Below are positions 6,248 through 50,815 of a stretch of DNA of 64,000 nucleotides, in pieces. This stretch comes from Crossaster papposus (Eukaryota > Echinodermata > Asteroidea > Velatida > Solasteridae), in contig JBAIAA010000095.1 in assembly GCA_037893245.1 (NCBI GenBank), positions 558,001 through 622,000 of the forward strand. Direction: 5' to 3'. Within the stretch, counting starts at the first letter, position 1; every line of letters begins with the position of its first letter. A program made the position numbers and the translations under genes. The notes under the pieces are model-generated. The model was not told the DNA's origin, ran no database searches, and was given only the letters and a program-made list of their open reading frames with translations.

Positions 6248-9200
6248 CTTAGGCAGACAGCTTTCTGGTCCCAGCGTGACCTGCAGGTCAGCCTCCCAGC
6301 CAATCACAGCTTTCAGCCCTCGCTGCAGTGTCTTGTCAATCAAGACGTCGGCACCGTGCAGAAATCCTTGCTTCAGCTCTGGGTCCACCTTTCAATTCAC
6401 AATTCAATCATAAGCCATTAAAATTCAATCATAAGCCATCACAAGCAATCGGAAGTGAACCATAATTTAAAACGGAAAGTATACCCTTTGAAAGTGCAAA
6501 AACAAAATCATGTCAATCATAAGTCACAAGTCAATTAGAAGTCAATTAGAAGTCAATCAGAAGTCAATCAGAAGTCAATCAGAAGTCAATCAGAAGTCAA
6601 TCAGAAGTCAATCAGAAGTCAATCAGAAGTCAATCAGAAGTCAATCAGAAGTCAATCAGAAGTCAATCAGAAGTCAATCAGAAGTCAATCAGAAGTCAAT
6701 CAGAAGTCAATCAGAAGTCAATCAGAAGTCAATCAGAAGTCAATCAGAAGTCAATCAGAAGTCAATCAGAAGTCAATCAGAAGTCAATCAGAAGTCAATC
6801 AGAAGTCAATCAGAAGTCAATCAGAAGTCAATCAGAAGTCAATCAGAAGTCAATCAGAAGTCAATCAGAAGTCAGTCACAAGCATCACAACCAATCGTAA
6901 GTCATCACAACAAATCATAAGTCATCATAAGCCAATAATAAGTCAGTGATCATAATCAAAGCTGAAAAGGGATCAATTAATCAATCGGGAAAACAAGTAA
7001 CGCTCAAAGCAAAACTTACTGTGTCATCGTGCTGCCAGCCGCCCCTCTCCTTGAAAATCCCTACGTCCAGGCGTGCTTTCATGGAGACTTCTCCCACGAG
7101 CTTGGCTAGGAAGACCAGGCACTGGGCTATCTGAGTGTGGGCTTCCGAGATCATGCTGTCGATATCACCATCACAACCCTGACGGAAAAACAATTATCAA
7201 AAATTAAACAGATGTGACAATAACATTTATTTATGCATATTTCTTCGTTTTATCTGAAAACCGAACTTGACTTGCTTGTGAAAAGTTTGGAAATGAATCA
7301 GGATTCACTCCAACCCCCTACTTTGTATTTATTATTTATTAGAAAATTTCTCAGGCAAAATACAACATCTAACAATTAAATAATTTAATTACATTAAATT
7401 CCACCATATGCAGGCCTGAAGGATTGCCTAAAAAGCTATAAAAACTTATCGAGAGGCCCTCCAACTACAATTAGAACAATTTAGCACGAGACACAAAAAC
7501 AAACAAAAACAAAGAACAACAAACAGACATACAAGCACAAACAGAAACACACAGGACACAACAAGCATGAAAAACAAACAAACAAACATCCCACAACCCT
7601 ATCTAACCTCTTACAACCCTATCCCTTACACACTCCCTTCCCCTAAAAAGTCAAATCCTTCATTTCACCAATATCCCTTATTACCAATGTTTTTACATCC
7701 CTTCAAGGTATAGAAATCTTTGACTTCTTACCTGTAGAAGTTTCATTATCATCACAAGGCATCACAAGCCATCACAAGGCATCACACGTATATAAATCTT
7801 TGACCTCTTACCTGTAGAAGTTTCATAATGTGGCCGGCGGTTTTCCGGCACGTGTCCACCATCTGCTCCACGAGTTCTCGCCGCGAATCGTCTTCCGAAG
7901 CCTCTGGACTCTCAACCAAATGGCCCGGGTTCGAATCCCACATGCAGACGAGACTCGTCAGAAGTTGCATGGAGCAAGTTGCTTGCAAGAGCATCTGGTC
8001 TGCGCTTGTCGGACCAGACGGGTCGCCTAAGGAAAGAATTAAATGGGCACGACAACACAAAAGGGGGTTCACAAGTAATACAATCACAAGTCAATCACAA
8101 GTAATACAAGCCATCACAAGTCATCCATAAGCATCGCAAGCAATCATAAATCAAGTCAATCATAAATCAAGTCAATTATATGTCAATCATAAATCAAGTC
8201 AATTATATGTCATGTCAATCATAAGTCATGTCAATCAAAAGTCACAAGTCAGTCATAAAGTTAATCATAAGTCAATCACAAGCATCACAACCAATCGTAA
8301 GTCATCATAAGTCAATCATAAGTCAGTGATCATAATCTAGTTGCTTGCAGGATCATCTGATCTGATCGGACCAGAGAGCTCGTCTAAAGGAAAGAATTAA
8401 ATGTGCACGACAACTAAAGCATGATTAGACAAAAGGGGGTTCTTAGAAAATTTCTGCAATATTTCCCTGAGATATTAAAATAATTCCCGACAAATATTTT
8501 TACTTCATGATAAAGGTTACTGGGAAGACAAGATACCTGCTGACGAGCTCCCGGCTCCCTTTATGCATGTGTTTATGCATTATCCGTTTTGAATCTATTA
8601 ATGTTAGTTCTTATATAGCGCTTTAGACTCCCATAATATGGGTGTATCAAAGCGCTTTACAACTATTATCCCCGTTCACCAGGAACGAGACCATTTCCGC
8701 AGCAGCTCAAGATCAGCGCATGTGGTCTCTACCTTCACAGGTACCCATTACTCCTAGGTGCAGAGAGGCAATTGTAGCAAAGTGTCTTGCCCAAGAACAC
8801 AAGCACCATGTTCCCTGCCAAGGTTCGAACCCACGTACCATCATACAGGAGTCAAACACGGTAACCACTGGACCACAGTGCCCCACTGTTGTAGTAGGTT
8901 TGGTTGGCATGTATGGCAATCATAGCACCCTGTGTGGGAAAAACTTTGCGTGTATATACGCCATATCCGGCGCGAACTGGTTAAAGAGCTTTAGGGAAAA
9001 AATGGGTTTGTGGTTAACTGTAGAAAAATGAAGGAAAAAATTTTGAAAATTCTCACTGGAATCCACGAAGGGCTCATTCCTGGTCGCATATGTCTCCTGC
9101 AGCGCTGTGACGGCCACCTTGACCCTCTGCATGGCCGCAAGGACGCAGTCAGCGATGGTCATTTCATGGGAGCGGGGACAGTCAGTCAAGCTGGACTTTA

Positions 9201-12200
9201 GAAATGACCGACAGAGATTTGCCAGTCCTGGGTTGTGGATAGAATTCCTCTGGCTGTGTATGCTTCCTGTACACAAAAAACAGGATGTTCAGATCCCAGA
9301 TCCTACAAAAACCATCAACTTTGTACTAGGTTTTTTGTAGACTTTGAATAATTACAATGTATAAAGACTGGGCATTGACCCTTACCCTTTCAAATCTTAA
9401 ACAACAAAAAAGTGTGTTTAAAGGTAGGATACCGGTACACCATTGGTAATAGCTTGAATTATCACGAATGAATGGATGTAAAAGGTAGGATACACCATTG
9501 GTAATTGCTTGAATTATCAGGAATGGCCTGGGTGGATGTAAAGGTAGGATATACACCATTGGTAATTGCTTAAATTATCAGGAATGGCCTGGGTGGATGT
9601 AAAGGTAGGATACCCCATTGGTAAATGCTTGAATTATTAGGAATAAGTGGATGTAAAAGGTAGAATACACCATTGTAAATGCTGGAATTATCAGGAATGG
9701 GTGGATGTAAAGGTAGGATACACCATTGGCAATTGCTTGAATTATCAGGAATGGGTGGATGTAAAGGTAGGATACACCATTGGCAATTGCTTGAATTATC
9801 AGGAATGGGTGGATGTAAAGGTAGGATACACCATTGGTAATTGCTTGAATTATCAGGAATGGGTGGATGTGAAGGTAGGATACACCATTGGTAATTGCTT
9901 GAATTATCAGGAATGGGTGGATGTGAAGGTAGGATACACCATTGGTAATTGCTTTAATTATCAGGAATGGGTGGATGTAAAGGTAGGATACACCATTGGT
10001 AATTGCTTGAATTATCAGGAATGGGTAGATGTAAAGGTAGGATACACCATTGGTAAATGCTTGAATTATTAGGAATAAGTGGATGTAAAAGGTAGAATAC
10101 ACCATTGTAAATGCTGGAATTATCAGGAATGGGTGGATGTAAAGGTAGGATACACCATTGGCAATTGCTTGAATTATCAGGAATGGGTGGATGTAAAGGT
10201 AGGATACACCATTGGTAATTGCTTGAATTATCAGGAATGGGTGGATGTGAAGGTAGGATACACCATTGGTAATTGCTTGAATTATCAGGAATGGGTGGAT
10301 GTGAAGGTAGGATACACCATTGGTAATTGCTTTAATTATCAGGAATGGGTGGATGTAAAGGTAGGATACACCATTGGTAATTGCTTGAATTATCAGGAAT
10401 GGGTAGATGTAAAGGTAGGATACACCATTGGTAATTGCTTGAATTATCAGGAATGGGTGGATGTAAAGGTAGGATACACCAATGTAAATGCTTGAATTAT
10501 CAGGAATGGGTGGATGTATTAAGGTAGGATACACCATTGGTAATTGCTTGAATTATCAGGAATGGGTGGATGTGAAGGTAGGATACACCATTGGTAATTG
10601 CTTTAATTATCAGGAATGGGTGGATGTAAAGGTAGGATACACCATTGGTAATAGCTTGAATTATCAGGAATGGGTGGATGTAAAGGTAGGATACACCATT
10701 GGCAATTGCTTGAATTATCAGGAATAGGTGGATGTAAAGGTAGGAAACGCCATTGGTAATTGCTTGAATTATTAGGAATAAGTGGATGTAAAAGGTAGAA
10801 TACACCATTGTAAATGCTGAAATTATCAGGAATGGGTGGATGTAAAGGTAGGATACACCATTGGTAATTGCTTGAATTATCAGGAATGGGTGGATGTAAA
10901 GGCAGGATACACCATTGGTAATTGCTTGAATTATCAGGAATGGGTGGATGTAAAGGTAGGATACACCATTGGTAATTGCTTGAATTATCAGGAATGGGTG
11001 GATGTAAAGGTAGGATACACCATTGTTAATTGCTTGAATTATCAGGAATGGGTGGATGTAAAGGTAGGATACACCATTGGTAATTGCTTGAATTATCAGG
11101 AATGGGTGGATTTAGGGGTTGTATTTTATAGCAAATATCGTTACACTGACCTTTAAAAAAATGTACAATTATGGATGAATGGATGCCGAGAAAATAACTT
11201 TCGTTTTCAACCGGTGTCGGGCAGTTGTTAGAAATGTTGGGTCGTAAAATGAATCAAAGTGTTTACGTCTTTAACTCACCAAAACTTGTTGTAGAGCGAA
11301 CCCGGGGGGAGCCAGTACTATTGCTGGTCAGGGAACCCCAGCGATTAGGGGTGTAGGACCCACTGAAACATCTATTTGGATGGATAGATTATTTTTTCTA
11401 TTAAAATGACAGCAAACCAGACGAACAAATTTCATGGGGCGTTTAGTACCAGTACAATCTTTAATTCAAATTTGTTCTTCTTTATGATAATTGTTTGGTT
11501 ACTTTTGGGCTAAACGTAAATAATCATATTATGCCTTTAACCAGTTTGCGCCGGAGGACGTATATACACGCAAAGTTTTCTCCAGATTCAAAACGGATGA
11601 CGCATAAACACGTCGCGAGCAAGGCCGGAAATGTCTGTCAGCAGCGAGAAAGGCCGGAAATGTTTGTCAGCAGCGAGCAAGGCCGGAAATGTCTGTCAGA
11701 AGCGAGCAAGGCCGGAAATGTCTGTCAGCAGCGAGAAAGGCCGGAAATGTTTGTCAGCAGCGAGCAAGGCCGGAAATGCCTGTCAGCAGCGAGCAAGGCC
11801 AAAAATGCGTGGGTGTGCTTCCCGGTACCATCGGCCAGAACCCGCCTCGCACCAAGTTTCGTTATAATCCCGCGCCTCGGCTCAGTGATGTTAAAATAAT
11901 CCCGGCGCGAAAGGATAAAACAAAAAGACCAGTCTAGTGCTCTATTTAGTATATTTATTGTATGCGACCCCTGACCTTTTCAATGGTGTCAGCGGCGAGT
12001 CAATCTTGTAGTCTTTCTCCCAGTCGTCATTAGGATCGTAGAAGACGTCGTCATCGTCAATAGAATCCCCTCTCCTCCCAACAGACTGGTGGTCAGAGAA
12101 ATAATATGATAGTCAGGTAATTTTTCCAGTGGTCATTCCAACTCTCATTTGTAAGGCAGGGTACACCATTTGCAGATATTGACAATTTTTACTACCGAAT

Positions 12201-14389
12201 TATTGAGAAATATCTTAGTTATTTAAAAGTAAATAATGATTCTAGGCATCCAGCAAAATGATTGCGCTAAATAACCTGTAATTGTTCCAATTTTTTAATT
12301 TTCTTTTAACACGAACAACAAAAATAACTGCCCAACGTTGACATATTGTAGGCATAGGATGAAATGTTTATCTCAAATCTTATTGTTCACAAGCTCAGTT
12401 GAAATACCTAAGGCCTAGGCTATACGCCGTGCTACTGCCGTGCCGAACTCAAATAATTTGATTTTTATTAGTTTAACGCGGCAGTAGAACGGCGTTTAAA
12501 ACCGATTCGGCTCGGCAAATAATTTGGCACGGCAAAGCCCTTTAGCTCGACAGGGCCTGCCGCGCTATCGGTTTTAGCACGACACGGCGCCAATTAAGAA
12601 CGGCGTTTAGTGCAACGCCGTGCTATTGCCGCACTATTGCTGCACTCATTTTAATTAAGTTCGGCACGGCAGTAGCACGGCGTATAGCCTAGGCCTTACT
12701 CGCTTATTGAGACATGATCATTCATTCAGTTCTTTACCTTAAACATCTCCCTCATTTGAATGAGCCTGCCCTCAAGTTTGGCCAGAGACCAGGAGGTCAT
12801 GATGCCTAGTTGGCTGTTTGTGACTCGGACTTGAACTGTCGATTGGAGATCTAGAGACGAGGACCCTGTACTACTTGACGGTACGTCTTGACGATTGAAA
12901 ACCTACAAAGAATAAAAACCAAGTATCACAGGTTTCATCTTTATTCTGTCGATTGGAGATCTAGAGATGAGGACCCTGTACTACTTGACGGTACGTCTTG
13001 ACGATTGAAAACCTACAAAGAAAACAAACCGAGTATCACAGGTTTTATCTTTATTCTGTCGGTTGGAGATCTCGAGACGAGGACCCTGTACTACTTGACG
13101 GTACGTCTTGACGATTGAAAACCTACAAAGAAAACAAACCGAGTATCACAAATTTTATCTTTATTCCCCAAGATGCTTCAAAATCTGCCAGGCAGCATTA
13201 CAAGGTTTCTGTGATGGAATAAGGAAATCATAAGGAAGTCGGTATGGATATCAAGTGCATCACAAGACCGGTCTTGGTGGTGAAGGTATTCGCTTTGATT
13301 CACACGTGCATCACAAGCCCAATTGCAAGATTCTTGTGATGATACCAAGTACATCACAAGTCCGATCATAAGGTACTCGCTATGGATCACAAGTGCATCA
13401 CAAGTCCAATCATAAGGTACTCGATCTCTTTGATTCACACGTGCTTCACAAGCCCAATTGCAAGATTCTTGTGATGATACCAAGTACATCACAAGTCCGA
13501 TCATAAGGTACTCGCTCTGGATCACAAGTACATCATAAGCCCGATCATAAGGTACTCGCTATGGATCAAAAGTACGTCACAAGTTCGATCATAAGGTACC
13601 GCTATGGATCACAAGTACATCACAAGTCCTATCATAAGGTACTCTCTTTGAATCACACATGCGTCACAAGCCCAATTGCAAGATTCTTGTGATGATCACA
13701 AGTAAGTACATCACAAGTCCGATCATAAGGTACCCGCTATAGATCACAAGTGCATCACAAATCCTATCGCATATCCATCACAAGCTTAATATGGCTCATC
13801 AGGCCGACGTTTCTCTAGTTTTCGTGGCATCACTGGATGGGATGCTAGTCCATCGTAGGTATACTCCAATTAAGCTAATTCCGGTACCCATCTTTACTCC
13901 TGGATGGAGAGAGGCAAGTTGGGGTGAAGTGGCTTGCCCAAGGACACAAAACCTGACCATGAGTCACGAACCCCAACCACCAGCGGCCAATTTCATAAAA
14001 CATGTAAGCACAAACATTTGCTTAGCACAAACAAGTCTTGTTATTAAAAACAGGTACCATCCCAAAATCCATTTGCTTTTCATGCTAAGCAAAATCCAGC
14101 TGAATACCAGTCACAAACAATAAACATCATCTGAAAATTGGATTTGTAACCCGTTTTTGCCAAGGAAGAATTTTCATGCTAAGCAATTTTTTGTTGCTTA
14201 CATGTTTTATGAAATTGGCCCAGGCTACAATCCCGGAATGGGTATATAACCAGGTCAGTGAAAACAGTGAAGTCAGTGTAACGCTTTTTCAACTTACCAC
14301 GTGCTTGTTCAGTTTACGGCTGATATTATTAGCTTCTTGTAGCCACATGGACAGCTGCAGTAAGCTCCTTCTGTTCGTAGCTGTCGAAA
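6248..14389 (-). CDS. KIF14: KIF14 exons 18-24: C-terminal helical tail
   Basis: Exon 18 encodes [19 protein letters not shown], aligning with the LSMMIQEANAISSKLK stretch of human KIF14. Exon 19 encodes [16 protein letters not shown] and exon 20 an acidic [17 protein letters not shown] segment, both with clear human counterparts. Exons 21-24 encode helices matching the human tail (for example [20 protein letters not shown]). The 65-66 codon exon 21 has two possible acceptors; 9253 keeps phase with exon 20. Introns are unusually repeat-rich: a 54-bp satellite (intron 20), an 11-bp array (intron 23) and two elements in intron 19. Exons 19 and 22 have partial tandem copies. Human KIF14 continues well past the last exon seen here, so the stop codon is missing from this model. 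Confidence 0.88.
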
Positions 14390-17300: not shown

Positions 17301-20300
17301 CTGTGATTTCTCAGCCTCTCTTCCTCGACCTCGGCCTCTAATCTGAAGAAAGCAGGTTTGTTTGAGAAGCAGGTTTGAGACAAGGCACGGTACCTTGCAC
17401 TCTGAGCAAGATGAATATTCAGAAGCTAAACATTTGAATGATGAATAGGGCCTAATCAATTTTAAGATATGAATATTCAGTGAGACAAGGCATGGTACCT
17501 TGAACTCTGAGCAAGATGAATACTCAGAAGATGAATATTCAGAAGCTAAACATTTGAATGATGAATAGGGCCCAATTAATTGTAATCAGGGAGTCAGGTT
17601 GGCGTAGCGGTTCTTTCCTCGCCTTCCACCACTTTGACCCGGGTTCGAATCTGGCCTGGGCCAATATGTGGATTGGGTTTTCAGTCCCTGCCTGACTCCG
17701 TGGGTTTTCTCCAGGATATTCTCCTGGGGTTTTCCTCCCACCTCTAAAACTGTACCTTCACTGCGAGCTACAGTGCCTAGAGCGCTTTTGAGAGATCCTT
17801 GGTTTCATTACCAGAAAAAATGAATAATAATAATAATAAAAAAGATATGATTATTCATTGGACAAGGCACGGTACCTTGCGCTTTGAGCGGCGACCAGTT
17901 CGTTTCTTGCAAACTCAAAATCCACGGAACCGACCGATTGATCGGTGAGCTTGGTTCTGTCTTGGACCTGGCCGGGATGGTTGAACCTGAAGTAGTGATC
18001 ACCGACAACCAATCGGTCACCCTAGAAAATAATAGACAAGACAATACAAGCCTCGTAAATAACTAAATGCTTAGCAATAAGCCAGTTCGGTATTCCAACT
18101 GCACAAGGCTATGGGAGACGTGAATCTGCATTATGTGAATTTTTCGTGCAACCGAAAAGACGATGGGAACTTTTGTTCGAACAAAGGCTAGCCAATTACG
18201 TACGTGTTTGAGGGTGTGCGTTCTCATGATGAGCTGACCGTTGACGAACGTCTGCGCGTCGCTCACTGGTCTCACAGTCACAGCGCCCTCTTTGTTGCTG
18301 ATCAAACTACAAAGCAATGAATAAAGCAACAAATGTCTTACACAAAAACGTGAACAAAATGCGGCGTCACAATTGCCCCGGCAATTTACTGTGTTCAATA
18401 ACGAAATTGAAAATCTAACAAAACCAATAAAGATTATCATTAAATAAACCCTTCAAATCTAGCAAGATCCAGCAGTTGGCAATCACCATTTGATCAATGG
18501 CTACAAATAACCAAGTCAGTTGTGTCCGACAAAACATTTCAAAATCTAACTCATTCCATTGATAGCAAACAAAACCCATCCAAACCCCCAACAAAACCAG
18601 TCCCTCTTCTAAAACACTGTCAAAATCCTATAAAATCAACAGAAATCAATCAAAACCCAAACAAACTCTTAATTCTCTCACCAATGGTCATCGGCCACCA
18701 ACGCTCCGGCCAGTTGTATCTGATGGCCAGAGTAGATGGCCAGAGTGGATGGCCAGAGTGTTTGTCCGTCTTACTAGGTCTGTAGTCTACTAAAACACTG
18801 TAAAATCCGTCAAAATCAATGGATATCAAACAAAACCCAACAAAACTCTTCTCTCACCAATGGTCATCGGCCACCAGCGCTCCGGCCAGTTGTATCTGAT
18901 GGCCGGAGTATTCGTCCGTCTTGCCCAGCCTGGTCTGTCCCTCTTTCAAGACGTAGAGCAGGACCTCGGAGAGCTGGGGGTCTTCGTTTAAGTTGACCAG
19001 GTTGGGCAGGGTGTTGTCGAACTTGAAGGCGACTCCTGATTTCTGCAAAAAAAATTATCAGTAGAGATCAGTACATTGTCTTTTGCATTTTACAACTCTG
19101 ACGTTTGGTACTTTCGCCAATAGAGTTAGCACCCACATTTTTTTAAATTGTTGTTATGCAAATTGCCCATCACAAGGTCAAAGGCCACTCGAGGTGTGGG
19201 CTACTAGAGGAAAGTGTTGAAGAACCAGCCCCTCACACTGAAACAAGACAATCTGATCTCTTCACAGCACGAATAGGGTTGGGATTAAACTAGTCCACAG
19301 CAAGGCATTAATAATGCCTCTACCCATATATATGTGTGGAAGTGTTCTAGCCCAGGCTGGGCTCGAACCACCAACCTGCAGAACTATCTGCAGACCACAA
19401 ATTCAATGCTCCTGACAACAAGGCCACGGCACTTCTAGGCCACGGCACTAGGCCACGGCACTTCCAATTCCTTCGGGGTAACCTTTTGTGCAGAACACTA
19501 GGAATGGGCATGATGCGATTTTGCATTCCAAGCGGACACAGCCAGGATGTGAATTTGAACTTTGGAGCTATTGGCCGTTTCCGCTTTAAAGGCAAATTTA
19601 CATCGTGCCCATTCTTAATAGAGTAACCTACCTCCATCTCCTCAATTTCCCGAACCCGTCTCGTCTCGCTGGCTTCCAGTCTCTCCCTCCACGATCCCTC
19701 GGCTTCCCTCATGTGCCGCTCCGACTGCGCCAACTTCCTCCGCAGCTCTGCAATCTCCGCCAGGGATTCCCTGATGGATTCCGTGTGGGTGTCCGTCACC
19801 ACGTCCGTCCCCCTGGGGTTCGGCGCAGGTCGGGGAGCTCGGGTCGGGGTGGTGAAGCCCTGGCCGCGAAGGCGCTCGATCTCGGCTCGCAGTTCTTTTG
19901 GTATGGAATAAAGTTGACAACTGATCAATGTGGTAAGCACAGTACATGTTCGAAGCACAAGCCCCAACCAAGTACCCTCAATCTGAGGCAGAGTGATTCG
20001 GACGGAAGCCAAATGGACAGGAAGAGATGAGGTTAATTTTAAACGACAATCATACTTCAATACACAATGGCAGTTAGTAACGAGCTGCGAACCGCAACTT
20101 TCATACCACACTGTCCTAGAATGAGTAAGAAGATCAAAGAAGCCTTCGCTGGGCAATTCCCAAGTGGGAAACTGTTCCTTTTAAACCAGTAAAGGATTAA
20201 AATTGGCTCCCGGTGGATGAGTGAGTTTAGGGTTTAACGCCGTGCCATCATCAGTGGTCATATTCACGGCGGGAATGTGTACAAATATAAGACAATAGGT

Positions 20301-27650: not shown

Positions 27651-27668
27651 TTGTCAAAAACTTCCAAT

Positions 27669-32581: not shown

Positions 32582-35500
32582 CTATTTCGGGGTCAAATTG
32601 TTATTTAATGCTTCTGTTGCGCCGAGTGTCTTCATACCTGCGTTAACATTCCGACTTACAAAATTTGGGTCCGAGGTTGAAACCGGCTCTGCAGCATCTT
32701 GCTGTGTCATTACCTGGTCCCCTGAGGTGGAGGATGACGAACTCTGACCTGGTATAAATGAGACGGAGGGTGAGTCGGTTTCGCCAGAGGTCCGAGTTGA
32801 ACTTTGACCCTGTGTGGCCTTAGTCTCTTCTCCAGCAGTCAAGTTTGTTGATTGATGGGATTGTGAATTAGAATCTGCTGTTAATTCCTGTGTCGTTTTG
32901 GTTACAGCTGCCATGTTTGTTTGGCCCAGTTCTCGAGGAAGGTTTTCCATTGGTGGGTTTGGACCGGATGAGATCGGGGTCGTCTTCGTATCGTCCAATG
33001 ACGATGATGGATGGCGTTGTGACTCCGCCTTCTTCACTGCCTCCCCCGCCTCCGTTTCGGCCTCGTAGCCCGCCAAGGTTTCCGTTTCCAGTTTCTCGAC
33101 CAGCTCCTGTAGTTTCTGAGACTTGCGTAATTCGTTCTCGCGGATGATAGTGCACAGATGCTCCGTCAATGCCTCCTTGTGCTCGGACGCCTTGTGGAAA
33201 TGAATTTTGGCCGTCACAAACTCCGCCTCTGCCTTTTGATACCTCTTCCTAAAAAAAAAAAAAAAAAATACGATCCAATTTTATCAGTTCAGCAGGGAAA
33301 ATATTGCTTAGCATAATTGCATGCAAAGCAAACAAGGGACTGGGAACCAGTCACTCGTAATATACAATGCATAAAGTGTTAGCTGGTAACCCGTTTCTGC
33401 TTAGCAAATATTGTCTGCGCTTAGTGACTTTCTGTGCAAATTAGAGCATTAGAGTGTACGCTAAGTCTATTACTTACTTAATCCTCTTCATCCCTAGTGG
33501 GACATACATGTAAAGACGCACACAAAGTTTATGGGGTTAGGTTATAGTATAGGAACAAAGGGAAACACAATAGTCGATCCTCGGTACATTATACATTGTA
33601 GAGCACAGCGGTGTGCACTTGAGTATGTAAACTCTGGCAATTGGGACAATTAGGTTAGGGCATTTAAACAAACGGTCCACGATTGAAAAACCATGTACAA
33701 AACCTATGGGAGGCCTTCCGAAAAAATGAAAGTACAAACAAAAGAGGGACAATGGGGAAGATGTAAGATGTTTACATACATGTATATGGGGGTTTGTCTT
33801 TGGTGTAAATGGAGGACACATCCCTGATGCCACGTCGGTGAATTGGGGTTAGGTGTGCAATCGAGGACGACCTCGATTGAGATTCGTGTACAAAACCAAT
33901 GAGAGCCGTCGGAAAAAGTTAAAAGTACAAACAAAGGAAATCATCGAAAGAAATCATTGATTTACACCATAAACAAACGTGTGTAGATGTTCTAGCCTCC
34001 ACCTAGTTGTGGGGACAGGTTCTTTCGTTTGGGAAAAAAACAGACCCAGTATTGGAGACATTTTCGAGTCCCCATAGCGCGTTGGGTCATCAGTAAAGGC
34101 AGAACAAGGTAAAATTGGGTTAGGGTATAATGAAAGAAAATATAGAAGACAAATTAGGGTGATGTTGAAAATTTTAGAGTTTGAGATTAGAGAGATTTCC
34201 CTTAGCACACAAACCCTATGGATTGTCCCCATAACGCAACGTACAAAAATAATTGATGTGCATTTTCCAACTCAAACCACATTCAACCAATTGCATGACA
34301 GCTCTGGGGCCAATTTCACAGAGCTGCTAAGCACAAAAATTTGCTTAGCACAAAAAAGTCTTGCTCATTAAAAACAAGTTATCAGCCAAAATTCTATGTG
34401 TTTTTCATGCTAAGCTAAAAAACAGCTGATTATCAATCAAAAACAATAAAGATCACGTGAAAATTTCGTCTGTAACCTTGTTTTTACAGAGGGCAAATTT
34501 TCATGCTAAGCAAATTTGTGTGCTTAGCAGCTCCGTGAAATTGGCCCCTGAAGTATTTAGGCTCTCTAAAGCCGCGTTCGCATTGGACTTTTTTTGGTAA
34601 ACCCACGGAGAACTTAACCAAATTAAATCCAATGCGGACAGGCGGTAACATTGTCAAATCGTTCATTTTACCCTCCGCAACAGTAAGATCTACAGGCCCA
34701 AGCTTCTAGCGGAGGATTTAACACCGTGAACTTTGACAATCATGTACCGTAACATTTGACAATATTAAGTCCAATGCGAACGCGGCTTAAGTCTACTCAC
34801 CGAGCTTCAGAGTAGTGGCGGCTCGCCTCTTCGATCTTGTCGCGGAGGATGTTGACGTCGTTCGTCAGGAATTCTTCAATCTTACCCAGCTCCTTCTGGA
34901 TGCAGGCAAGCCTCTTGACTTCAGCTTGGGTTTTCTTCCTCCTGTGAGACACCAAAAATAAAATAAAAGAATCAGAGATTACAATTCCGTACATTAATGT
35001 TCACAGGATTTCAACTAGACCCAGATAAAAAATATAGAAGAAAAAGAAGATAAAAATGATTTAGAAAAAAAAACAAAAAAAAAAACAGACATAATTTGAA
35101 CTTTGGAGGACAAATCCAGGACTTTCTTGGGAGGAGAGTTCTGCTTATACTATTTCCACAGCCTCACAAACCTCGTTTGGCATGTTCTGTACTCACAACA
35201 CTTGTGCTCCATCCTCAACTAAGCTCTTGGAAGTACAGTTGCAGTACTCCTGCACCCAAGCCCTTCATTGCGTGATTTACATATGACAGTGTGTAACACT
35301 TGTGCTCCATCCTCAACTAAGCTCTAGGAAGTGCAGTACTCCTGCACCCAAGCCCTTCATTGTGTGATTTACATACGACAGTGTGTAACACTTGTGCTCC
35401 ATCCTCAACTAAGCTCTTGGAAGTACAGTTGCAGTACTCCTGCACCCAAGCCCTTCACTGTGTGATTTATATAGGACAGTGTGTAACACTTGTGCTCCAT

Positions 35501-38500
35501 CCTCAACTAAGCTCTTGGAAGTACAGTTGCAGTACTCCTGCACCCAAACCCTTCATTGTGTGATCTACAGATGACAGTGTGTAACACTTGTGCTCCATCC
35601 TCAACTAAGCTCTAGGAAGTACAGTTGCAGTACTCCTGCACCCAAGCCCTTCATTGTGTGATCTACATATGACAGTGTGTAACACTTGTGCTCCATCCTC
35701 AACTAAGCTCTAGGAAGTACAGTTGCAGTACTCCTGCACCCAAGCTCTTCATTGTGTGATTTACATATGACAGTGTGTAACACTTGTGCTCCATCCTCAA
35801 CTAAGCTCTTGGAAGTACAGTTGCAGTACTCCTGCACCCAAGCCCTTCATTGTGTTATTTACATATGACAGTTTGCAACACAGTTATCACCCCGTTTATC
35901 AGGCCACACGGCAGCCGACATCTGCACACATTTGGTTTCTACCCCCACAGTTGCCCATTTAGACCATTTAACCAGTTCGCGCCGGGATTATTTTAACATC
36001 GCCGAGCCGACGGGCGGGATTATTTTTAACGAAACTCGATCCGAAGCGTGTTCAGGCCTATAGTGCTGGGTAGCACACCCACGCATTTCCGGCCTTGCGC
36101 GCTGCTGACATACATTTCCGAACTTGAACTTGGCGTATATATTCGTCATCCGTTTTGAATTGGGGGAAATTTTTGCGTTTATATTCGTCATCCGGCGCGA
36201 ACTGGTTAAGAGATAGGCAATTGCGGTAAAGTGTCTTGCCCAAGGGCATAAACACAACCACTGGTCCTTGGCTATCCAAATGATTTTGGAGTCACTTGGT
36301 GCACAACAGAAATGGATTTGTGACTTGTGGTATCCATTAAATCGTAATAAACTTTTTTTTTAAATAGCCTTTTCTCCCCCCTCCCCTCCCCTCCCCTCCC
36401 CCTTCCCCACCCCTTCTCTGACCTGTCGGCGATGGCCATTGTCAGTAGGTTTTTCTTCTTCTGATTCTCATCTTCGATTTCTTTCTGTCGGTGCTGAAAT
36501 TCCTCCAGTTTAGACATTTCCCGGCTGTGAACACAAAATGACAAAGTTGGATAAAGAAAAAAACACAATTGCTTTACGGCTCAAATGCAGTCGCGACCTC
36601 ACAAGTTATGAAGTTAGTCTATGAATTGCGCTATCGTATAGCGACTATAAGATAATGTGAGCAGATTCTGTGATTAAATATGCAAAACACAACTGTGCCT
36701 TGACCTCGAATTCAGTCCACTCAGCCAGGCTTTTATCACACCTTCCATAACCCCTTGTTGTACACGGTTAACCGACCGTTACATGGTTACATTTTTCCTG
36801 TTCGGTTAACCTTTTTAATTTTTGTAAATTTTTGTAAATTTTTGTAATTTTTTGTAAATTTTTGTAAATTTTTGTAAATTTTTGTAAATTTTTTTAACGT
36901 TGGATACGGTTAACCGTTAACCGAACCGCAAAACATACGGTTACATGGATAATTTGATAACCGCAAACTTGCAGGCTTAATAACAACCAAATTTACCACT
37001 CAACCATAACTTGACTGATGACAATAACCTTAGAAAGTTTTAGCTCTGTGAATGTTGTACATACTTCCGAGAAAATAATGTTCCAAGATTTCTATTTTGA
37101 ACGAACTACTAAAAATGCGTCTCCGAGACAAATGTTTGGACTTCTTTGATCATTTCCTTCAAAATGACGGCATGCCTGAATGAATTACTTTCACAGTGAG
37201 TTTAGAGTCATTAATCTCTTTTACATTAAATAAGCTTTTAAACAATATTTTGGTTGGTTACTTTTTGTATAGTTTCAAAAAGTGTACTGTCTCTTTAAGT
37301 TTTAAACGTTCTTCATTTGAATTATTACAGGGAAAAAACGATCTGCATAAGAAGCAATTGATTCTATTTGCCTTTATGAGTGAGAGAGCATATCTTTTAT
37401 ATGTGACTATCCACGACAAAAGGGCTGTAAAGTCACCAGAGCTTATTTAGAGAAAAGGACCATTAAAATATGTGACCTGTCATCACAAAATGAGCGTAAA
37501 GTCGGCAAAATCAAAAATTGAGATATGGGTATTTCTAAATTCTGTGGAAACAGAGCTTTCCAATGGTATATAACACTTGTAGGTTTGATCCTCAATATTT
37601 TTTTGTATTTGTATTTTTTAGTCTGGAGTCTTAATACAGAGATTATGAGAAAACGGGCATTTCTTGCGAGAAATTGTGTGAACGCGCAAAGAAAGGCATA
37701 GTCAAAAATTTTCTCAAAAACTATTTTTTTTGTATCTGATCGTCCTGAAAAATTGGGAATTGATTGTTGGGAATTTAGTCTTTAAAAAAACCATAATCTC
37801 AAAACCGACCACCCCTTCAAATTTTGACTTTGACTGGCCGTACTGAGAAATCATTCCGTGCGACTTTACGCTCATTTTGTGATGACAGGTCACATATGTG
37901 AAAAACAATAAAAAAACAAAGAATGTTCATATTCAGTGTTACGTGTTGTACATGTAGCTAACCATAAATACCAACTATGTCTTGTAATACATCACTTTAA
38001 AGCTTATTTCTTGTAGATTTCATTTATCTAAATATCTCAAAGCGTCAAGATGCCTACTTTACAGCCCTTTCGTCGTGGACGGTCACATATCAATTATCAT
38101 TGTTCCTGCTATGATAAATACAATCAAAGTTTTCAACATACCTTAATCCTTCTTTCTCGTTGAGCTCTTTGCCCATTGAAGCCTTGCTGTTGTCTGCCGT
38201 TCTGTCGACCGTCTTCACCCTGGGCGATCCATCAACCGGTGTCTCTCCCCCCAATGCACTCCTTTCCTTGCCCGAGTTAGTTCGCTTCACTACTCCCGAT
38301 TCATCGGATTGTTCATCACTGGGCGTATGTTGATCCGATTGGCTATTCTGAACGGGCGGTTTCATTCTATCCGATTCGTAATTACACGGAGCCCCGTCAG
38401 CGTCGGGGCTACGGGTTTCCGTCGGACTCGATCTCTGATTGGCTCGTTGTCTTTGTTGCTGTGGTAACGGCTTCGGCTTGGATAGCAGCTGGCTCTGATT

Positions 38501-39585: not shown

Positions 39586-39601
39586 ACACGAATTCGGAAA
39601 G

Positions 39602-42700: not shown

Positions 42701-43019
42701 ATCTTGACATTAACAAATCATCGACAGTGAAATTGGACACTATAGGCAGCGCAGGATTATGTCGATCCAGTGAAAACATCTTTTCATTACCACAAGCGTT
42801 TCCACTGGTGGTTGTGTCACTTGTGTGTTGCCGTTTGGCACTCCAGACCCAAGAACTATTGATTTTTAAGTAAATAGGTCTGGAAACTAGACGTGGCATT
42901 GTAAGAACCTACTAGATTTCCGCACTCGCCTGGTCGACACAACAAACAATAATCGGTCCTGGGTTCAAATCCACCAGCGTCCCATATCCACTTGCATTTT
43001 TTGTGGGGTTATAATATTC

Positions 43020-44075
43020 TGGGAGACCCTATCCCCTGCTGAATGCAACGCTGGTCAAAAGTTGTTGCATCTTGTTGCTTTGAGCGACCGACTCAAGGTC
43101 CAGTGCTCTGTTGCATCTTGTGGTATTTAACATGGTAACGGCTGATACAACAGAATCTACTGTTGCATTTAGTGTGGTAACTGCTCATAGTGCCATGGCT
43201 GATACAACATAATCTACTGTTGCATTTGGTTGCATTTAGCATGGTAACTGCTCATAGTGCCATGGCTTATACAACAATCCCATGTTGCATTTGGTTGCAT
43301 TTAGCACGGTAACTGCTCATAGTTCCATGGCTGATACAACATAATCCCATGTTGCATTTGGTTGCATTTAGCAGGGTAACTGCTCATAGTGCCATGGCTT
43401 ATACAACATAATCCATGTTGCATTTGGTTGCATTTAGCATGGTAACTGGTCATAGTTCCATGGCTGATGCAACATAATCCCATGTTGCATTTGGTTGCAT
43501 TTAGCATGGTAACTGCTCATAGTGCCATGGCTGATACAACATAATCTACTGTTGCATTTGGTTGCATTTAGCATTGTAACTGCTCATAGTGCCATGGCTG
43601 ATACAACATAATCCCATGTTGCATTTGGTTGCATTTAGCATGGTAACTGCTCATAGTGCCATGGCTGATACAACAGAATCCACTATTGTATTTGGTTGCA
43701 TTTAGCATGGTAACTGCTCATAGTGCCATGGCTTATACACCAATCCCATGTTGCATTTGGTTGCATTTAGCATGGTAACTGCTCATAGTGCCATGGCTGA
43801 TGCAACATAATCCCATGTTGCATTTGGTTACATTTAGCATGGTAACTGCTCATAGTGCCATGGCTGATACAACATAATCCACTGTTGCATTTGGTTGCAT
43901 TTAGCATGGTAACTGCTCATAGTGCCATGGCTGATACAACATAATCCACTGTTGCATTTGGTTGCATTTAGCATGGTAACTGCTCATAGTGCCATGGCTG
44001 ATGCAACATAATCCCATGTTGCATTTGGTTGCATTTAGCATGGTAACTGGTCATAGTTCCATGGCTAATTTTAAG
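43020..44075. repeat. 66-67 bp satellite downstream of DR1, about 14-15 copies
   Basis: Units contain GTTGCATTTGGTTGCATTTA, GCATGGTAACTGCTCATAGT and CCATGGCTGATACAACATAA. The left end has shorter, diverged units without the doubled GTTGCATTT. May be part of the DR1 3' UTR if the transcript extends this far. Confidence 0.93.
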
Positions 44076-44935
44076 AATTTACTAGCAGTTGTTTGAGAAG
44101 TTAAATGTCCAGCTGAAACAAATTCATTTTTTTACACAGATTATTAATAATAGTTGCATATTAAAATACCTCAGTTGTGAAAAAAAATGTGTGGGCTCGT
44201 GTTCCTTGTTTCAAATTTTTGATGGACTTCATTTATTCATTACCTAATCTTATTTTGTGCCTAATGTACTCTTATACCAAAAAGTAGTCCCCTCCTAATT
44301 ATTTCCAATATTACCGCTCATTATATGCTGAAAAAGAGCAAAAAATTAAATGCCATGTTTAACCTTGGGTCTTTTCGAATTTCTGGCTTCGTCTTCGTCT
44401 TTGACTTAAGGCGATTTTTGACTCCCAACTGCAAGATCTCCAGCCACATTCTGACGCCTGTTGTACTTCAGAAACATTCACTCGATTGATGTGAACCCAA
44501 AAGTTAGACTATTTCAATTTTCTTCCATTTCTATTTGCTTCTCAGTATTTCGGAATTCGGAGGCAAAGCCAAAGACGAAGCAACGGTTTCGAAAAGGCCC
44601 CTTGATGGGTTGGACAGATATCCCTGACCCTGTGATGTCGATTGGTGGCGCTAGTCTCTCTGCACGTGGCGCACATAATTTAAACGCACAAGTCATCTCG
44701 CGAAGATAAATTGAACACGGTCGGCAAATATTATAATTAGAGGGTCGTAAAAGCATCAATATTTAACACCAAGCCAAGGTAATTATTTATTAAAATCAAA
44801 TTTACTTTTATTGATTCATTTGTGTGCGTAGATTAAAATAAACATCTCGATGTGAACATAGTTTTCTGTAATTGTAACACTAACAGTAACACAAGTAACA
44901 CTGTGCATGGAGGTAGGAAACATGCACTGTGTAAG

Positions 44936-45065
44936 GCCGAAAAAACGGGGAACCCCGTTTAAATCCACCCATTCATAATTCAAGCTATATGGTGTATATC
45001 AAAGATCGTAGAGCGCCGTACCCTAGGCCGCTCTAGGGTCTTTGGTGTATATAGTCTACCTTCAA
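44936..45065. mobile_element. Family-C MITE end fragment carrying a nested 45-bp element
   Basis: AAATCCACCCATTCATAATTC and the following GGTGTATAT...GTCTACCTT match the right end of family C, split by the element at 45000-45044. Confidence 0.75.
45000..45044. mobile_element. 45-bp hAT-like mini-element with 8-bp target duplication
   Basis: Ends CAAAGATCGTAGAGCG and, inverted, CAAAGACCCTAGAGCG. Flanked by GTGTATAT at 44992-44999 and 45045-45052. CAAAG fits the hAT terminal consensus YARNG and 8 bp is the hAT duplication length. Confidence 0.75.
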
Positions 45066-45216
45066 GTTTTGGAACTTTCAATAGTACATATTTAGAGTCC
45101 CAAATTTGGACCAATGAAATGCCAGCCATCTACATACAATTATTATTATTATTTAGTATTAAAATATAATTTCTCCTAATACTATACCTTAGGCTTAGCA
45201 TTTTTTTTTGACCAGA

Positions 45217-48200
45217 ATGGCAGGATTGTCTCCTAAGAAAGCAAAGGCGGTCTTGGACCTCGTGTTTGTGACAGGGAATGCAAAGAAGTTCGAAGAAGTA
45301 AGTGGTCTGCTAATCGGTCAGATAAGAGTGGGTATTAGAAAAATAAACGGACTAATAAAAAAATTAAAAACGGTGTTGACATAAAATCTAACGGCCTCCC
45401 CCCCTCCCCCCCAAAAAAAAAAAAAAAAAAAAATAATAAAAAAAAAATACAATGCATTCTTATAAGCAGATATATAAATGATACACACACGGTCATGATT
45501 TGTGTGACTACACGCCTCAGCCAAACTAATTTTATTGAAAACGTTCTCAAAACAATTTTCCCGGCTACCGTTTTTTCTGAGGGGCCACCGGGAATTGTGT
45601 AGCACCAAAGGTATTTAACTTCACTTGTTATGGGGCACCATCAGCCCCCAGAGCACCATCATGCTCTGTATCAATGTCAGAGTTTGGGCACCAACAGCCC
45701 CTAGGCACCAACAGCCTAGACCATTAATCATTCTACACAATGGGCGCCAAATGCCCCTGGGCATCAAACTTTCCAGTCACCATCTTGTCTTTTATGTATG
45801 TACAGTTTTCTTGCGGCTTAGACTCAGTGCGGTTTATACACGCATTGCTATAGCTATACGCTGGGGGCCTGAAGCGGCCTTCGCGGTAATTCCATGTTCC
45901 TGCTTATAAATAATTTGATCTTTCAGGGATAACATTTGAAATTAATTATTATTATTATTATTTTTTTTAATAGGTAGTGGTCATTCTGGGAGATAAGTTC
46001 AATGTGATGTCCCGAAGCATAGACCGTAAGTTTAAAACAAGATTCGGAACTTGCCCAATGCCGTATCCTACCTTTAATAAGCAATTGTAGTTTAAAGGAA
46101 GGATACACCATTTGCAGATATCAAAACAATTTACTACTAAATTATTAAGAAATATCTTACTTATCTGAAAGTAAACAATGATTGTAGGCATCTAGCGCAA
46201 CGATTGCGCTAGATATCCTGTAATTGTTACGAACAATTGAAGTTTATGAACAATGGCGATCACGAAAATACAAGAACAACATAAGAACAACTGCCCGACG
46301 CTGGTTAAAAACGAACGTCGTTTTTCTTGCTTTTCTCAGCATCCATGGTTGTAAAACTTCAGACAGGTCAGTTAAACGATGTTTACTATAAAATACAACC
46401 CTTCAAATCTACCCATTCATGATAATTCAAGCAATTACCAATGGTGTATCCTACCTTTAAAAAGTAGTCTCTCTTGATATTTTTTTCAGTTCCAGAATTT
46501 CAAGGCGAACCGGACGACATATCGATAGCGAAGTGTAAAGAAGCGGTCAAACATGCAAGTATTTTGTATTAAACTTCAATTTTATTTAAATTCAGTGACA
46601 ATGAAGGGGCAAAAATCCGCCTTGCGTGAGCAAATAATAGATTGTAATAAAATAATATCAAACGTGCGCGCGAGATGTGGCATGATGTGGCAGTGCTGTT
46701 GTACGTAAAACTGTGAAATATGGTCTTGTTGGTGGTAATGCACCTACCTTGGGAGGTTTCAACCAATAAAAACGGTAAAAACGGGATCAGAATTTACAGG
46801 CTTCCAAATTTCATGTGACACCAGAAAAAATTGTTTAACCAGTTCGTGCCAGAGTACGAATATATACACGCAAAGTTTACCCCAGATTCAAAATGGATGA
46901 CGCATAAACACGCCACGAGCAAGGCTGGGAATGTCTGTCAGCAACAAGCAAAGGCGAAAAAATGTCATGGGTGTGTTTTCCGGTACCATCGGCCTAAACC
47001 CACTTCAGAACGAGTTTCATTAAAAGTTATCCCGCGCCTCGGACTCTCGACCATTAGGAATGGATAAACTGTCTCAGAAAGTATGTTTGTTAAAATTAAA
47101 TTAAATATGGAAAGTCTAATACCACAACTTTGTGAAATACCGCTAAAATACCCGACCACTGCATAAAAACATAAATGCAAACCTATTTTCCGTTCTGCAG
47201 GTGAAAGGCCCTGTTATTGTTGAAGATACCTGTCTGTGTTTCAACGCATTAGGAGGGTTACCGGGCCCTTACGTGTAAGTTTTCCTCAAAGCTCAATTTT
47301 GTTTTAATTCATCATTCTTGATGTTTTTGTTTCAGCTTTCTATCAACAAAAGTTTGCTAAAAAAATCTCGGTTTTTATTAAAAGATATAATGAAGTTAGA
47401 TTAAACTGTTGAATTTCCTTATTATTTCAATAAAAAGAAAGTGTTTATTTTCTTTCTGTTTTCTATTTTTATTGTAGAAAATGGTTCCAATCAAAACTAG
47501 GACCATCTGGTAAGTAGTGAATCCTTCCTAAAGTTCCTCAAACTATACCAATAACAGCCATGGCAGTCAATATATTTATATTCAATTATACAAGTTATAC
47601 CGAGAGTATCACGGGATATTTGTAAGGCACTATACTACTATGCCACGACAGTTAATATTTGAATATTCCCCTCTTGAAAGGTATGCATTGTTTACGAGGC
47701 CAGGAGTCTGCCTATGCAATACATGCATATTTTTAGGGCACTAGTTGTACTATGACATGGCAGTCAATATGATATTCATCCGTTGCAAGAATTGTAAATA
47801 AGGGAATATGTTATTACACCACGAGCAAGAGTACATATAATACATCACATAATATTTTCAGGGCACTAGTTGTACTATGCCACGGCAGTCAATATTTTTT
47901 CTATATTCCTATTGTAGGTCTGCATCGTCTACTAGCAGGCTGGGAGGATAAGTCAGCCTATTCACTGCATGCATACTTCCAGGGCACTAGTTGTACTACG
48001 CCACGGCAGTCAATATTTGTTCTATATTCCCTATTGTAGGTCTGCATCGTCTACTAACAGGCTGGGAGGATAAGTCGGCCTATTCACTGCATGCATACTT
48101 TCAGGGCACTAGTTGTACTATGTCACGGCAGTCAATATTTGTTCTATATTCCCTATTGTAGGTCTGCATCGTCTACTAACAGGCTGGGAGGATAAGTCAG

Positions 48201-50815
48201 CCTATTCACTGCATGCATATTTCCAGGGCACTAGTTGTACTATGTCACGGCAGTCAATATTTGTTCTATATTCCATATTGTAGGTCTGCATCGTCTACTA
48301 ACAGGCTGGGAGGATAAGTCAGCCTATTCACTGCATGCATATTTCCAGGGCACTATAGTTGTACTATGCCACGGCAGTCAATATTTGTTCTATATTCCCT
48401 ATTGTAGGTCTGCATCGTCTACTAACAGGCTGGGAGGATAAGTCAGCCTATTCACTGCATGCATACTTCCAGGGCACTAGTTGTACTATGCCACGGCAGT
48501 CAATATTTTGTCTATATTCCCTATTGTAGGTCTGCATCGTCTACTAACAGGCTGGGAGGACAAGTCAGCCTATTCACTGCATGCATACTTCCAGGGCACT
48601 AGTTGTACTGTGCCACGGCAGTCAATATTTTGTCTATATTCCCTATTGTAGGTCTGCATCGTCTACTAACAGGCTGGGAGGATAAGTCAGCCTATTCACT
48701 GTGTACATTTGCCTATTCCAACGGGAACCCAAAAGATCCAGTACTGACCTTCAAAGGCAAAACACACGTACGTTGAACTTTACCCTTTGCCCTTTAATCC
48801 TCGTTGTGTTGTCAACTTTATTTCCTATGCTCTCCGGCTCCATAGCTAGATATCTCACCGTGAGATTGTCACATTTGTGACCGTCCACCATGAAAGGGCT
48901 GTAAAGTAGGCATCTTGACGTTTTGAGATATTTAGAGAAATGAAATCTACAAGAAATAAGCTTTAAAATTATGTATTACAAGACATAGTTGGTATTTATG
49001 GTTAGCTACAACAAGTAACACTGAATATGAAAATTCTTAGTTTTTTATTGTTTTTCACATATTTTTTAATGGTTCTTTTCTCGAAATAAGTCTGGCGACT
49101 TTACAGCCCTTTTGTCGTGGATGGTCACATTTGGTTTGGCACCAGTCTTTTGATGCTTGAAAAAAAAATGTCATTTTCAAAGATACGTTTCAGAGACTTA
49201 GTAGTTGGTTTGTATTCTGTGAATGATGTGCGTGGCTGCTATCATTGGTCGGTTCAGTGCGTGACACGTGATTTACATGAATAAGAACGCGCCCCGAATG
49301 CCGATTGTGGTCGCAAATTCAATGTGTGACTCGTCAAATATTGAAATAAAAATGTCTTGTTTTCCCAGATTATAGAGCATTCATAGAGATAAAACTTCAC
49401 CCGTTTAGTTGTCAATAACCATGCTTTAGATTTGGGGCACTTTTGCTGCTTCAAACGAGAAAAACTGACAAATGGTCTACTATACCTTGAAGCCTAATGA
49501 AGTGGCCATGACAGGAGTCGAACCTGGATCATCCGAGCTGACGGTCGAGTCGTAATCTTACTTTTTTTGGCTTGTTCCTTTCATAGGGTACCATTGTGTC
49601 CCCGCGTGGCCCCCCAAGTTTTGGATGGGACCCTTGCTTTCAACCAGATGGCTTCACTCAAACGTAAGTAGACTCACAAATTTTGGGCTTTCATCACTTC
49701 TGTCAGGAAAAATAAATCATTTTATATGCATATACATGATGGTCACAGAGGGGCCAGACTATAATCCTCTCTGTACCTTTTAGTGTAGGCCGTGTCCGAA
49801 ACGGGTGTCTAGAGCTACAGCTACGGCTATTGTCTACGTCGGCCATTTTGTAGCGCTGTCCGAAATGCCGTCTAGAGCTACAGCTACGGCTAGAACGCCA
49901 CAAAAATCTAGCCGTAAAGGAAGTTGTCTAGCTCAGGCAAAATGGCAGCAGCACTAATGTTAATTTTGAAGCAAATTTTAGTTTATTTTTCAATGATAGT
50001 GCATTGAATTGAAACGACAAATACGACAAATACGTCAATATCAGCAGGTATTTCGACTGGCTGTAAACAAACATTGCGTAACATCTAGCAGACGAAAATT
50101 GTTGTAAATTCTTACGTCGTAATTTCACAAACACTAATTCAAGCATCGCTTGGGGGCGCAATAACTTGCCGTAGGCTCTACCGAATTTCATTTGTCTTAG
50201 CGCCTACATAGACGTAGCTCTAGACACTCGTTTCGTACACGGGTCTATGGAAAATCGCCAAAAACAAAACCAGGTTACCAGCCAAAACTACATTTGCTAT
50301 TAAGCATAAACCAGCTGAATACCAGTAACAATCATAACCCTGTTTTTATCTAGAAAGAATTTTCATGCTAAGCACATTTTTGTGCTTAGCCCCAGTACAG
50401 AGTTTTATTAGACTTGCATGAGTCTCACCTTAACCCCCAAATTTGAATATCTGTGGGGGCTAACCTAGTCCTCATTTAGACTTGCATAAGTCTCACATCT
50501 GTCTCTAAATTTGACGAATACAGAGACCCCTGTACCAAACTAGTCTTAAATCAAATGACTGTGCTTTAAAACAAAAACATTGATGATTATAAATGCAGGT
50601 TGAAAAAAATCCTAAAACAGAATCCTAAAAGTGTTCGGTACGTCTCACAAACATTAATCCTCAGAAATTTGCAAATTTAACATCCAATTTTCATTTTATT
50701 TTAAATTCTCCCCGGCCTCAGTTATGCAGAGATGGAATCGGCAACCAAGAACAGCATATCGCACAGAGGAAAGGCACTGAAAATACTCGCTGAACATTTC
50801 TTGAACATGTCGTGA
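45217..50815 (+). CDS. ITPA: ITPA, inosine triphosphate pyrophosphatase
   Basis: Hydrolyses ITP, dITP and XTP to monophosphates and pyrophosphate, cleaning deaminated purines from the nucleotide pool. Exons: 45217-45297, 45974-46025, 46490-46554, 47201-47274, 47478-47509, 48652-48767, 49587-49663, 50722-50815; 196 residues (human 194). Signature segments: [12 protein letters not shown] (substrate loop), [60 protein letters not shown] and the C-terminal SHRGKAL motif. Intron 3 uses a GC donor (CAT|GCAAGT). Six partial extra copies of the exon 6 start, each with a 3' splice site, lie upstream of the true exon 6. The poly-T plus ACCAG just before the ATG suggests a spliced 5' UTR. Confidence 0.96.
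46091..46461. mobile_element. Family-C MITE, full length, in ITPA intron 2
   Basis: TTTAAAGGAAGGATACACCA left end and GGTGTATCCTACCTTTAAA right end; 371 bp. Its right end lies 28 bp before ITPA exon 3. Confidence 0.9.
46835..47045. mobile_element. Family-D MITE, right end degraded
   Basis: TTAACCAGTTCGTGCC left end with family interior; ITPA intron 3. Confidence 0.75.
47560..48680 (+). repeat. 122-bp tandem array over the ITPA exon 6 acceptor, 7 good plus older copies
   Basis: The exon 6 start word GTCTGCATCG recurs at 47918, 48040, 48162, 48284, 48408, 48530 and 48652, each preceded by a TTGTAG acceptor. Units 47918-48651 carry the first ~50 nt of the exon and then CATGCATACTTCCAGGGCAC. 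Only 48652 continues as the full exon. Diverged older units extend left to about 47560. Confidence 0.96.
48874..49131. mobile_element. Family-A4 MITE, uninterrupted
   Basis: TTGTGACCGTCCACCATGAA left end, TCGTGGATGGTCACATT right end; ITPA intron 6, opposite orientation to 37400. Confidence 0.85.
49500..49560 (-). pseudogene. tRNA-like relic
   Basis: Minus strand has CCAGGTTCGACTCCTGTCAT, a B-box with T-arm like context; the rest of the cloverleaf is not convincing. Confidence 0.4.
49787..50246. mobile_element. Family-H MITE in ITPA intron 7
   Basis: Left end GCCGTGTCCGAAACGGGTGT then CTAGAGCTAC; right end GTAGCTCTAGACACTCGTTT then CGTACACGG. The subterminal block CTAGAGCTACAGCTACGGCT is repeated inside. 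About 460 bp, one copy in the window. Confidence 0.8.
50255..50398. mobile_element. Family-B MITE fragment
   Basis: AAAACCAGGTTACCAGCCAA through TTTTCATGCTAAGCAC; both termini incomplete. Confidence 0.6.

What the first reader, a model, noticed from the sequence alone, without database searches (positions are those of the whole stretch)
6248..48770. Recurrent process: exon edges, with their splice sites, are captured in tandem duplications
Five exons in two genes (ITPA exon 6; KIF14 exons 11, 13, 19 and 22, the last at both ends) have extra partial copies in the neighbouring intron. Acceptor-side copies lie 5' and donor-side copies lie 3' of the true exon, as expected if the intact outer copy is retained by selection. 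Six independent cases in 64 kb suggest a local mutational habit that makes decoy splice sites, which I have not seen described as such.
Basis: partly seen in the sequence, partly recalled or inferred. Interest (0 to 1): 0.88.

Follow-up and report, generated by a model that had tools for sequence, protein, structure and literature searches.

The report
Duplicated splice sites in sea star
In a sea star genome, short head-to-tail DNA duplications have copied the edges of exons together with their splice signals, leaving false splice sites that look as good as the real one; the same thing was described before in amphioxus, and here it looks like random hits of an abundant duplication process.

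Summary
Six exon edges in two genes (ITPA exon 6 acceptor; KIF14 exon 11 and 13 donors, exon 19 acceptor, both edges of exon 8026-7812) have partial copies carrying the splice site, on the side stated. The decoys score like the true sites on a simple matrix. The window is from a sea star: its KIF14 is 82% identical to Acanthaster planci. The pattern recurs in other genes: an anoctamin, an NB-ARC gene and two kinesin types. It is not undescribed: amphioxus 'mirages' (PMC3087553, PMC3902484) are the same thing at both exon edges. A preference for exon edges is not shown. In KIF14+ITPA 6 of 57 splice sites are captured, while 27-28% of noncoding bases there lie in local duplications. An event-based test does give an excess (6 of 10 clusters, expected 1.5-2.9), but only in the window that suggested the idea. 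Elsewhere 2 of 174 predicted sites are captured, about 2.1 hits expected (after stated drops). The copy order follows from tandem geometry, not selection. Best reading: mirages, extended to an echinoderm, made by random local tandem duplication.

The parts
47852..48701 (+). ITPA exon 6 acceptor array, unit 122 bp x 7; decoy acceptors with first exon base at 47918, 48040, 48162, 48284, 48408, 48530
   Evidence: TRF; acceptor matrix 6.4-6.7 vs 6.7 for the true site; use of each of the 6 decoys gives an early stop
48652..48767 (+). true ITPA exon 6 (Ham1p_like protein)
   Evidence: Pfam PF01725
47608..47850 (+). diverged copies of the ITPA unit upstream of the array
   Evidence: self-blastn
18605..18734 (-). 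copy of KIF14 exon 11 donor edge (decoy donor after 18682)
   Evidence: 87% identical to 18786-18910; donor score 3.97 for both
18858..19042 (-). KIF14 exon 11
17376..17585 (-). two copies of KIF14 exon 13 donor edge (decoy donors after 17499 and 17394)
17876..18021 (-). KIF14 exon 13
12836..13166 (-). KIF14 exon 19 acceptor array, 110 bp x 3 (decoy acceptors at 13012 and 13122)
   Evidence: TRF; acceptor score 10.3, 10.3 vs 9.5 true
12738..12902 (-). KIF14 exon 19
   Evidence: 81% to 7977-8056; score 6.1 vs 6.3
7708..7749 (-). copy of donor edge of KIF14 exon 23; decoy donor after 7732
   Evidence: 93% to 7788-7829; score 8.2 vs 8.2
7812..8026 (-). KIF14 exon 23, captured at both edges
6248..26060 (-). 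KIF14 gene, 25 coding exons seen in the window (the gene runs on beyond it)
   Evidence: best hit Acanthaster planci KIF14, 82%

Best explanation
These are 'mirages': minisatellite-like tandem duplications that happen to span an exon-intron boundary, here in a sea star. The introns of this genome gain local head-to-tail duplications often, and some have one breakpoint inside an exon. The intact exon stays at one end by geometry, and the duplicate becomes a partial exon edge with a full-strength splice site in the intron. Arrays then grow or shrink as minisatellites do. Shown: the copies, their structure, their recurrence in other genes, and a rate in line with random hits outside this window. 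Inferred: that the cell ignores the decoys because only the site next to the exon body pairs with the other exon end over a normal exon length (exon definition); and that slippage or break repair made the duplications.
For: Copies and arrays. Same structure in other genes: anoctamin L018, donor 75 bp x 5 and acceptor with about 87-bp copies; NB-ARC gene L006, 146 bp x 6; KIF2-like L037 donor, 133 bp x 8; KIF1-like L035/L036 donor, 145 bp x 8.3 and x 3.2. Capture of splice sites (6 of 57) lower than local duplication cover of noncoding bases, 27-28%. 2 of 174 predicted sites captured elsewhere, about 2.1 hits expected from random placement (after drops). Decoys as strong as true sites on a matrix; each of the 6 ITPA decoys leads to an early stop. 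Prior description, with RT-PCR support for regular splicing in amphioxus (PMC3087553, passages).
Against: Inside the discovery genes 6 of 10 duplication clusters capture a splice site, expected 1.5 or 2.9 by unit length (P 0.001 or 0.015), and 6 of 57 differs from 2 of 152 elsewhere (Fisher P 0.006). Pooling window and outside (my arithmetic, smaller unit length) gives 8 captures against about 3.7 expected, the excess coming from the window. This is post hoc, but could mean a local or partial preference. No RNA data exist here, so regular splicing is not shown. The sets are small, the exon models elsewhere are predictions, and all loci come from one assembly.
Confidence: 0.8

Rival explanations
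1. A mutational process that prefers exon edges (for example, duplication primed at splice-site-like sequences or at transcription- or nucleosome-related marks at exon borders).
For: 6 of 10 duplication clusters in KIF14/ITPA take in a splice site, expected 1.5-2.9; two anoctamin edges in one 10-kb stretch; pooled with the outside set, 8 captures against about 3.7 expected (my arithmetic).
Against: Per base, introns are covered more than splice sites. Outside the window 2 of 174 sites, about 2.1 hits expected (after drops). Copies over exons should stay recognisable longer because one copy is under selection, which would inflate their count (inference, not corrected for).
Confidence: 0.1
2. 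The decoys are functional: kept to tune splicing or expression, for example by feeding some transcripts into decay.
For: Decoys keep full-strength sites; each of the 6 ITPA decoys would give an early stop.
Against: Recent tandem copies are expected to be intact. Some outer copies have decayed (ITPA 47608-47850; the last two units of the KIF2-like array). At least six genes or gene types here have them. Selective upkeep was not tested.
Confidence: 0.05
3. Assembly artefact (stuttered copies).
For: All sequence is from one assembly; some loci appear on two contigs with near-identical scores. In amphioxus, copy number differed between two versions of the PGBD5 sequence (PMC3902484, passage) and one globin mirage was called aberrantly assembled in the draft (PMC3087553, passage).
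Against: Copies are not exact (about 75-98% identical pairs), have different unit lengths and occur on several contigs. The amphioxus PGBD5 repeats were confirmed by re-sequencing (PMC3902484, passage).
Confidence: 0.03

Closest known systems
Amphioxus 'mirages' (Adh3; globins BflGb6 and BflGb9; PGBD5; troponin C)
   Same: Tandem, minisatellite-like copies spanning the exon-intron boundary; either edge; units of 10-72 bp (Adh3), 60 and 108 bp (PGBD5) and 150-160 bp (globins) there, 75-146 bp for the arrays here; splice signals in many copies; true exon intact. Read in PMC3087553 (passages) and PMC3902484 (passages).
   Different: Described in cephalochordates; here an echinoderm (best KIF14 hits sea stars at 82% and 76%, amphioxus hybrid 49%). 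The original 2002 paper (PMC117041) is not held and was not read.
Intron gain by tandem genomic duplication (e.g. potato RdRp, PMC4974935, seen in search listings only; Rogers model as cited in PMC3087553)
   Same: Short tandem duplication brings duplicated splice signals.
   Different: There the duplication makes a new intron within the coding sequence; here copies lie in existing introns and no new intron is shown.
Tandem exon duplication (recalled)
   Same: Head-to-tail copies with coding sequence.
   Different: Copies here are partial exons with one splice site, not whole exons with two.

Membership tests
Mirage (amphioxus) | Tandem repeats whose unit spans an exon-intron boundary | tested here: met
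   clear tandem arrays at ITPA exon 6 and KIF14 exon 19, one or two copies at the other edges
Mirage (amphioxus) | Both acceptor and donor boundaries can be affected | tested here: met
   acceptors: ITPA 6, KIF14 19 and 23; donors: KIF14 11, 13, 23
Mirage (amphioxus) | Copies carry AG/GT splice signals | tested here: met
Mirage (amphioxus) | Regular splicing is not disturbed | not testable with these tools
   no RNA data
Mirage (amphioxus) | Copy-number instability between haplotypes | tested here: inconclusive
   KIF1-like array 8.3 vs 3.2 copies on two contigs, but alleles or paralogues is not decided: aligned parts 86-94%, downstream intron does not align
Intron gain by tandem duplication | Duplication inside an exon creates a new intron | tested here: not met
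   copies lie in introns of a KIF14 model whose exons 1-20 align to A. planci KIF14 over their whole length
   per base lower; per event higher in this window; not higher elsewhere

The most novel reading that the evidence does not exclude
Mirages are common across this sea star genome. If the 2 of 174 rate holds, about 1% (wide interval) of all splice sites have one or more near-identical decoys: a natural experiment in how the spliceosome chooses between equal sites, and a steady source of new exon-intron structures outside cephalochordates. A real preference for exon edges is not excluded either.
Probability: 0.45. Interest if true: 0.6.

Novelty: new member of a known kind. Interest (0 to 1): 0.42.

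Why it matters
It takes a little-known amphioxus oddity to an echinoderm and puts a rough rate on it. Genes with several equally scored splice sites in a row, of which one should be used, allow a direct test of exon definition and splice-site choice. They also warn that gene predictors and exon-duplication counts in such genomes can be misled. If arrays vary between haplotypes, their effect on splicing can be tested within a species.

Tried and rejected
Exon-edge preference: a per-base test and an event test disagree inside the window, so I sought independent genes. Chance similarity: rejected by copy lengths and identities. Amphioxus as the source: rejected. KIF1-like contigs C1238 and C1108 as two haplotypes: not settled. 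A mitochondrial-code test of the taxon (PF00115), a search for a second haplotype of ITPA and censuses with PF00176 and PF00063 (calls listed below) did not complete. Flags dropped from the outside count: L005 (77% alignment into an 11-bp array), L006 (a real array, but the locus was fetched for matching a minisatellite of the window) and L010 6368 (a predicted 'exon' made of an array). Predicted chains not used: 2 of the 10 scanned without a Pfam family (L003, L017), L009 (none) and L011 (weak NUDIX match), and the other chains, which were not scanned.

Full report
What was checked. The window is base 558001-622000 of contig C95 of a 1.02-Gb, 1841-contig assembly. I read the six claimed places and ran self-comparisons. 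All six exon-edge copies are there. A 25-exon KIF14 model on the minus strand and ITPA exons 4-7 on the plus strand give 57 splice sites; the edges of one small KIF14 exon near 11375-11278 are approximate.

Organism and genes. The joined peptide of KIF14 exons 1-20 is 82% identical to KIF14 of the sea star Acanthaster planci, 76% to Asterias rubens, 53-55% to three sea urchins and 49% to an amphioxus hybrid (best 120 of 7983 listed; A. planci lineage). ITPA is supported by Pfam Ham1p_like; genes with PF04949, PF00808 and RasGEF/RA domains also lie in the window (the names ITPA, GORAB and DR1 are recalled). At 14 predicted exons of these three other genes no capture was flagged.

Anatomy. Each unit has an intronic part and an exonic part, with the splice junction between. 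ITPA: 122 bp x 7, 50 exonic bases. KIF14 exon 19: 110 bp x 3. The others are one or two copies. On a position matrix trained on these genes the decoys equal the true sites: ITPA 6.4-6.7 vs 6.7; exon 11 3.97 vs 3.97; exon 13 3.96 and 3.78 vs 3.78; exon 19 10.3 vs 9.5; exon 23 acceptor 6.1 vs 6.3, donor 8.2 vs 8.2. The true sites were in the matrix's training set (27 acceptors, 28 donors), so this is a comparison only. Splicing to each of the 6 ITPA decoys, or to either exon 19 decoy, gives an early stop.

Geometry. A head-to-tail duplication with one breakpoint in an exon leaves the intact exon at the end joined to the exon body. Acceptor copies must therefore lie 5' and donor copies 3'. This is no evidence for selection.

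Is it more than the background? In the spans of the two genes 27-28% of noncoding bases and 4.4% of coding bases lie in local duplications, against 6 of 57 (10.5%) splice sites, so per base the sites are hit less than introns. Per event the picture is the reverse: 10 duplication clusters, 6 capturing a site, expected 1.5 or 2.9 by the choice of unit length, P 0.001 or 0.015. That test was suggested by the same data.

Independent genes. In 18 further 10-kb stretches, at positions I chose without looking, on contigs named, 5.7% of bases are in local duplications, against 11.5% in the window. These contigs had matched a minisatellite of the window, so they are not a random draw of the genome. I wrote a small gene finder and used two kinds of check: six loci with chaperonin exons (33 of its 52 rows given to the script, 8 of the 33 got no exon) and predicted chains with a Pfam match (8 of 10 scanned); 136 sites, 5 flagged, 26 clusters, 4 capturing, 2.7 expected, noncoding cover 6.8%. 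Dropping L005 and L006, loci fetched for matching a minisatellite of the window (the L005 flag is also doubtful), leaves 114 sites, 2 captured, 1.67 expected. One search adds RasGEF, ubiquitin and sulfotransferase genes and four kinesin loci: 62 sites, 1 flagged, 0.44-0.83 expected; the flagged one is an array misread as an exon, and without it and its partner 60 sites, none captured. Together 2 of 174, about 2.1 hits expected with the smaller unit length. A Fisher test on the earlier tally, 6 of 57 against 2 of 152, gives P 0.006: the window is rich in captures, and it is also rich in duplications. Pooled over both sets (my arithmetic, smaller unit length) there are 8 captures against about 3.7 expected; the excess comes from the window. 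Exon calls in these loci are predictions.

Recurrence. Both captured sites of this set are in one anoctamin gene (L018; PF04547): a donor edge, 75 bp x 5, and an acceptor edge with about 87-bp copies. An NB-ARC gene has a 146-bp x 6 array over an exon end (L006). In the kinesin search (132 matches, 122 of 243 candidates scored) repeated matches to the same profile part mark three arrays, so 3 of 119 exon matches when each array counts once (my count from the table): on C17, 133 bp x 8, and on C1238 and C1108, 145 bp x 8.3 and x 3.2, all at donor edges. I call them KIF2-like and KIF1-like from recall; Pfam says kinesin for the first. C1238 and C1108 may be alleles or recent paralogues, so these may be two genes or three. 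I see no such repeats in the 52 chaperonin rows. This census sees only copies with a long exonic part.

What is known. [quoted passage not shown] earlier cases were in Adh3 and other loci; 150-160 bp units, 6 and 3 copies on two haplotypes, both edges, many copies with AG/GT, and RT-PCR suggests regular splicing is not disturbed (PMC3087553, passages). Amphioxus PGBD5 has 60- and 108-bp repeats over splice sites, confirmed by re-sequencing though copy number differs between sequence versions (PMC3902484, passages). My searches with sea urchin, sea star, echinoderm and starfish terms found no such report for echinoderms (open-licence papers only), so 'first in echinoderms' is likely but not shown.

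Conclusion. These are mirages in a sea star. The most economical account is an abundant local tandem-duplication process that strikes exon edges at about the random rate and is tolerated because splicing picks the site next to the exon body. The first part has support here; the second is inferred.

Noticed in passing
window 6524-6945; 8069-8325; 59395-59685; L002-L008: Dispersed 10-11 bp minisatellites of the kind TCAGAAGTCAA/CATCACAAGT: a query from the window finds 61 matches on many contigs (40 of 285 candidates scored).
   Followed up: partly
window 9436-11111: 54-bp x 31 array inside a KIF14 intron; related sequence also near 5040 and 23300, so the unit looks dispersed.
   Followed up: no
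L037 517-1665 (minus strand): KIF2-like exon end repeated 8 times at 133 bp; donor sites intact in the first six units, decayed in the last two.
   Followed up: yes
G000 contigs C518/C1092, C275/C741, C103/C912, C697/C1439: Kinesin matches with equal or near-equal scores on two contigs: the assembly seems to keep both haplotypes in places.
   Followed up: no
window 35197-35881 and 57795-57997: Nearly the same 98-bp unit forms arrays 22 kb apart.
   Followed up: no
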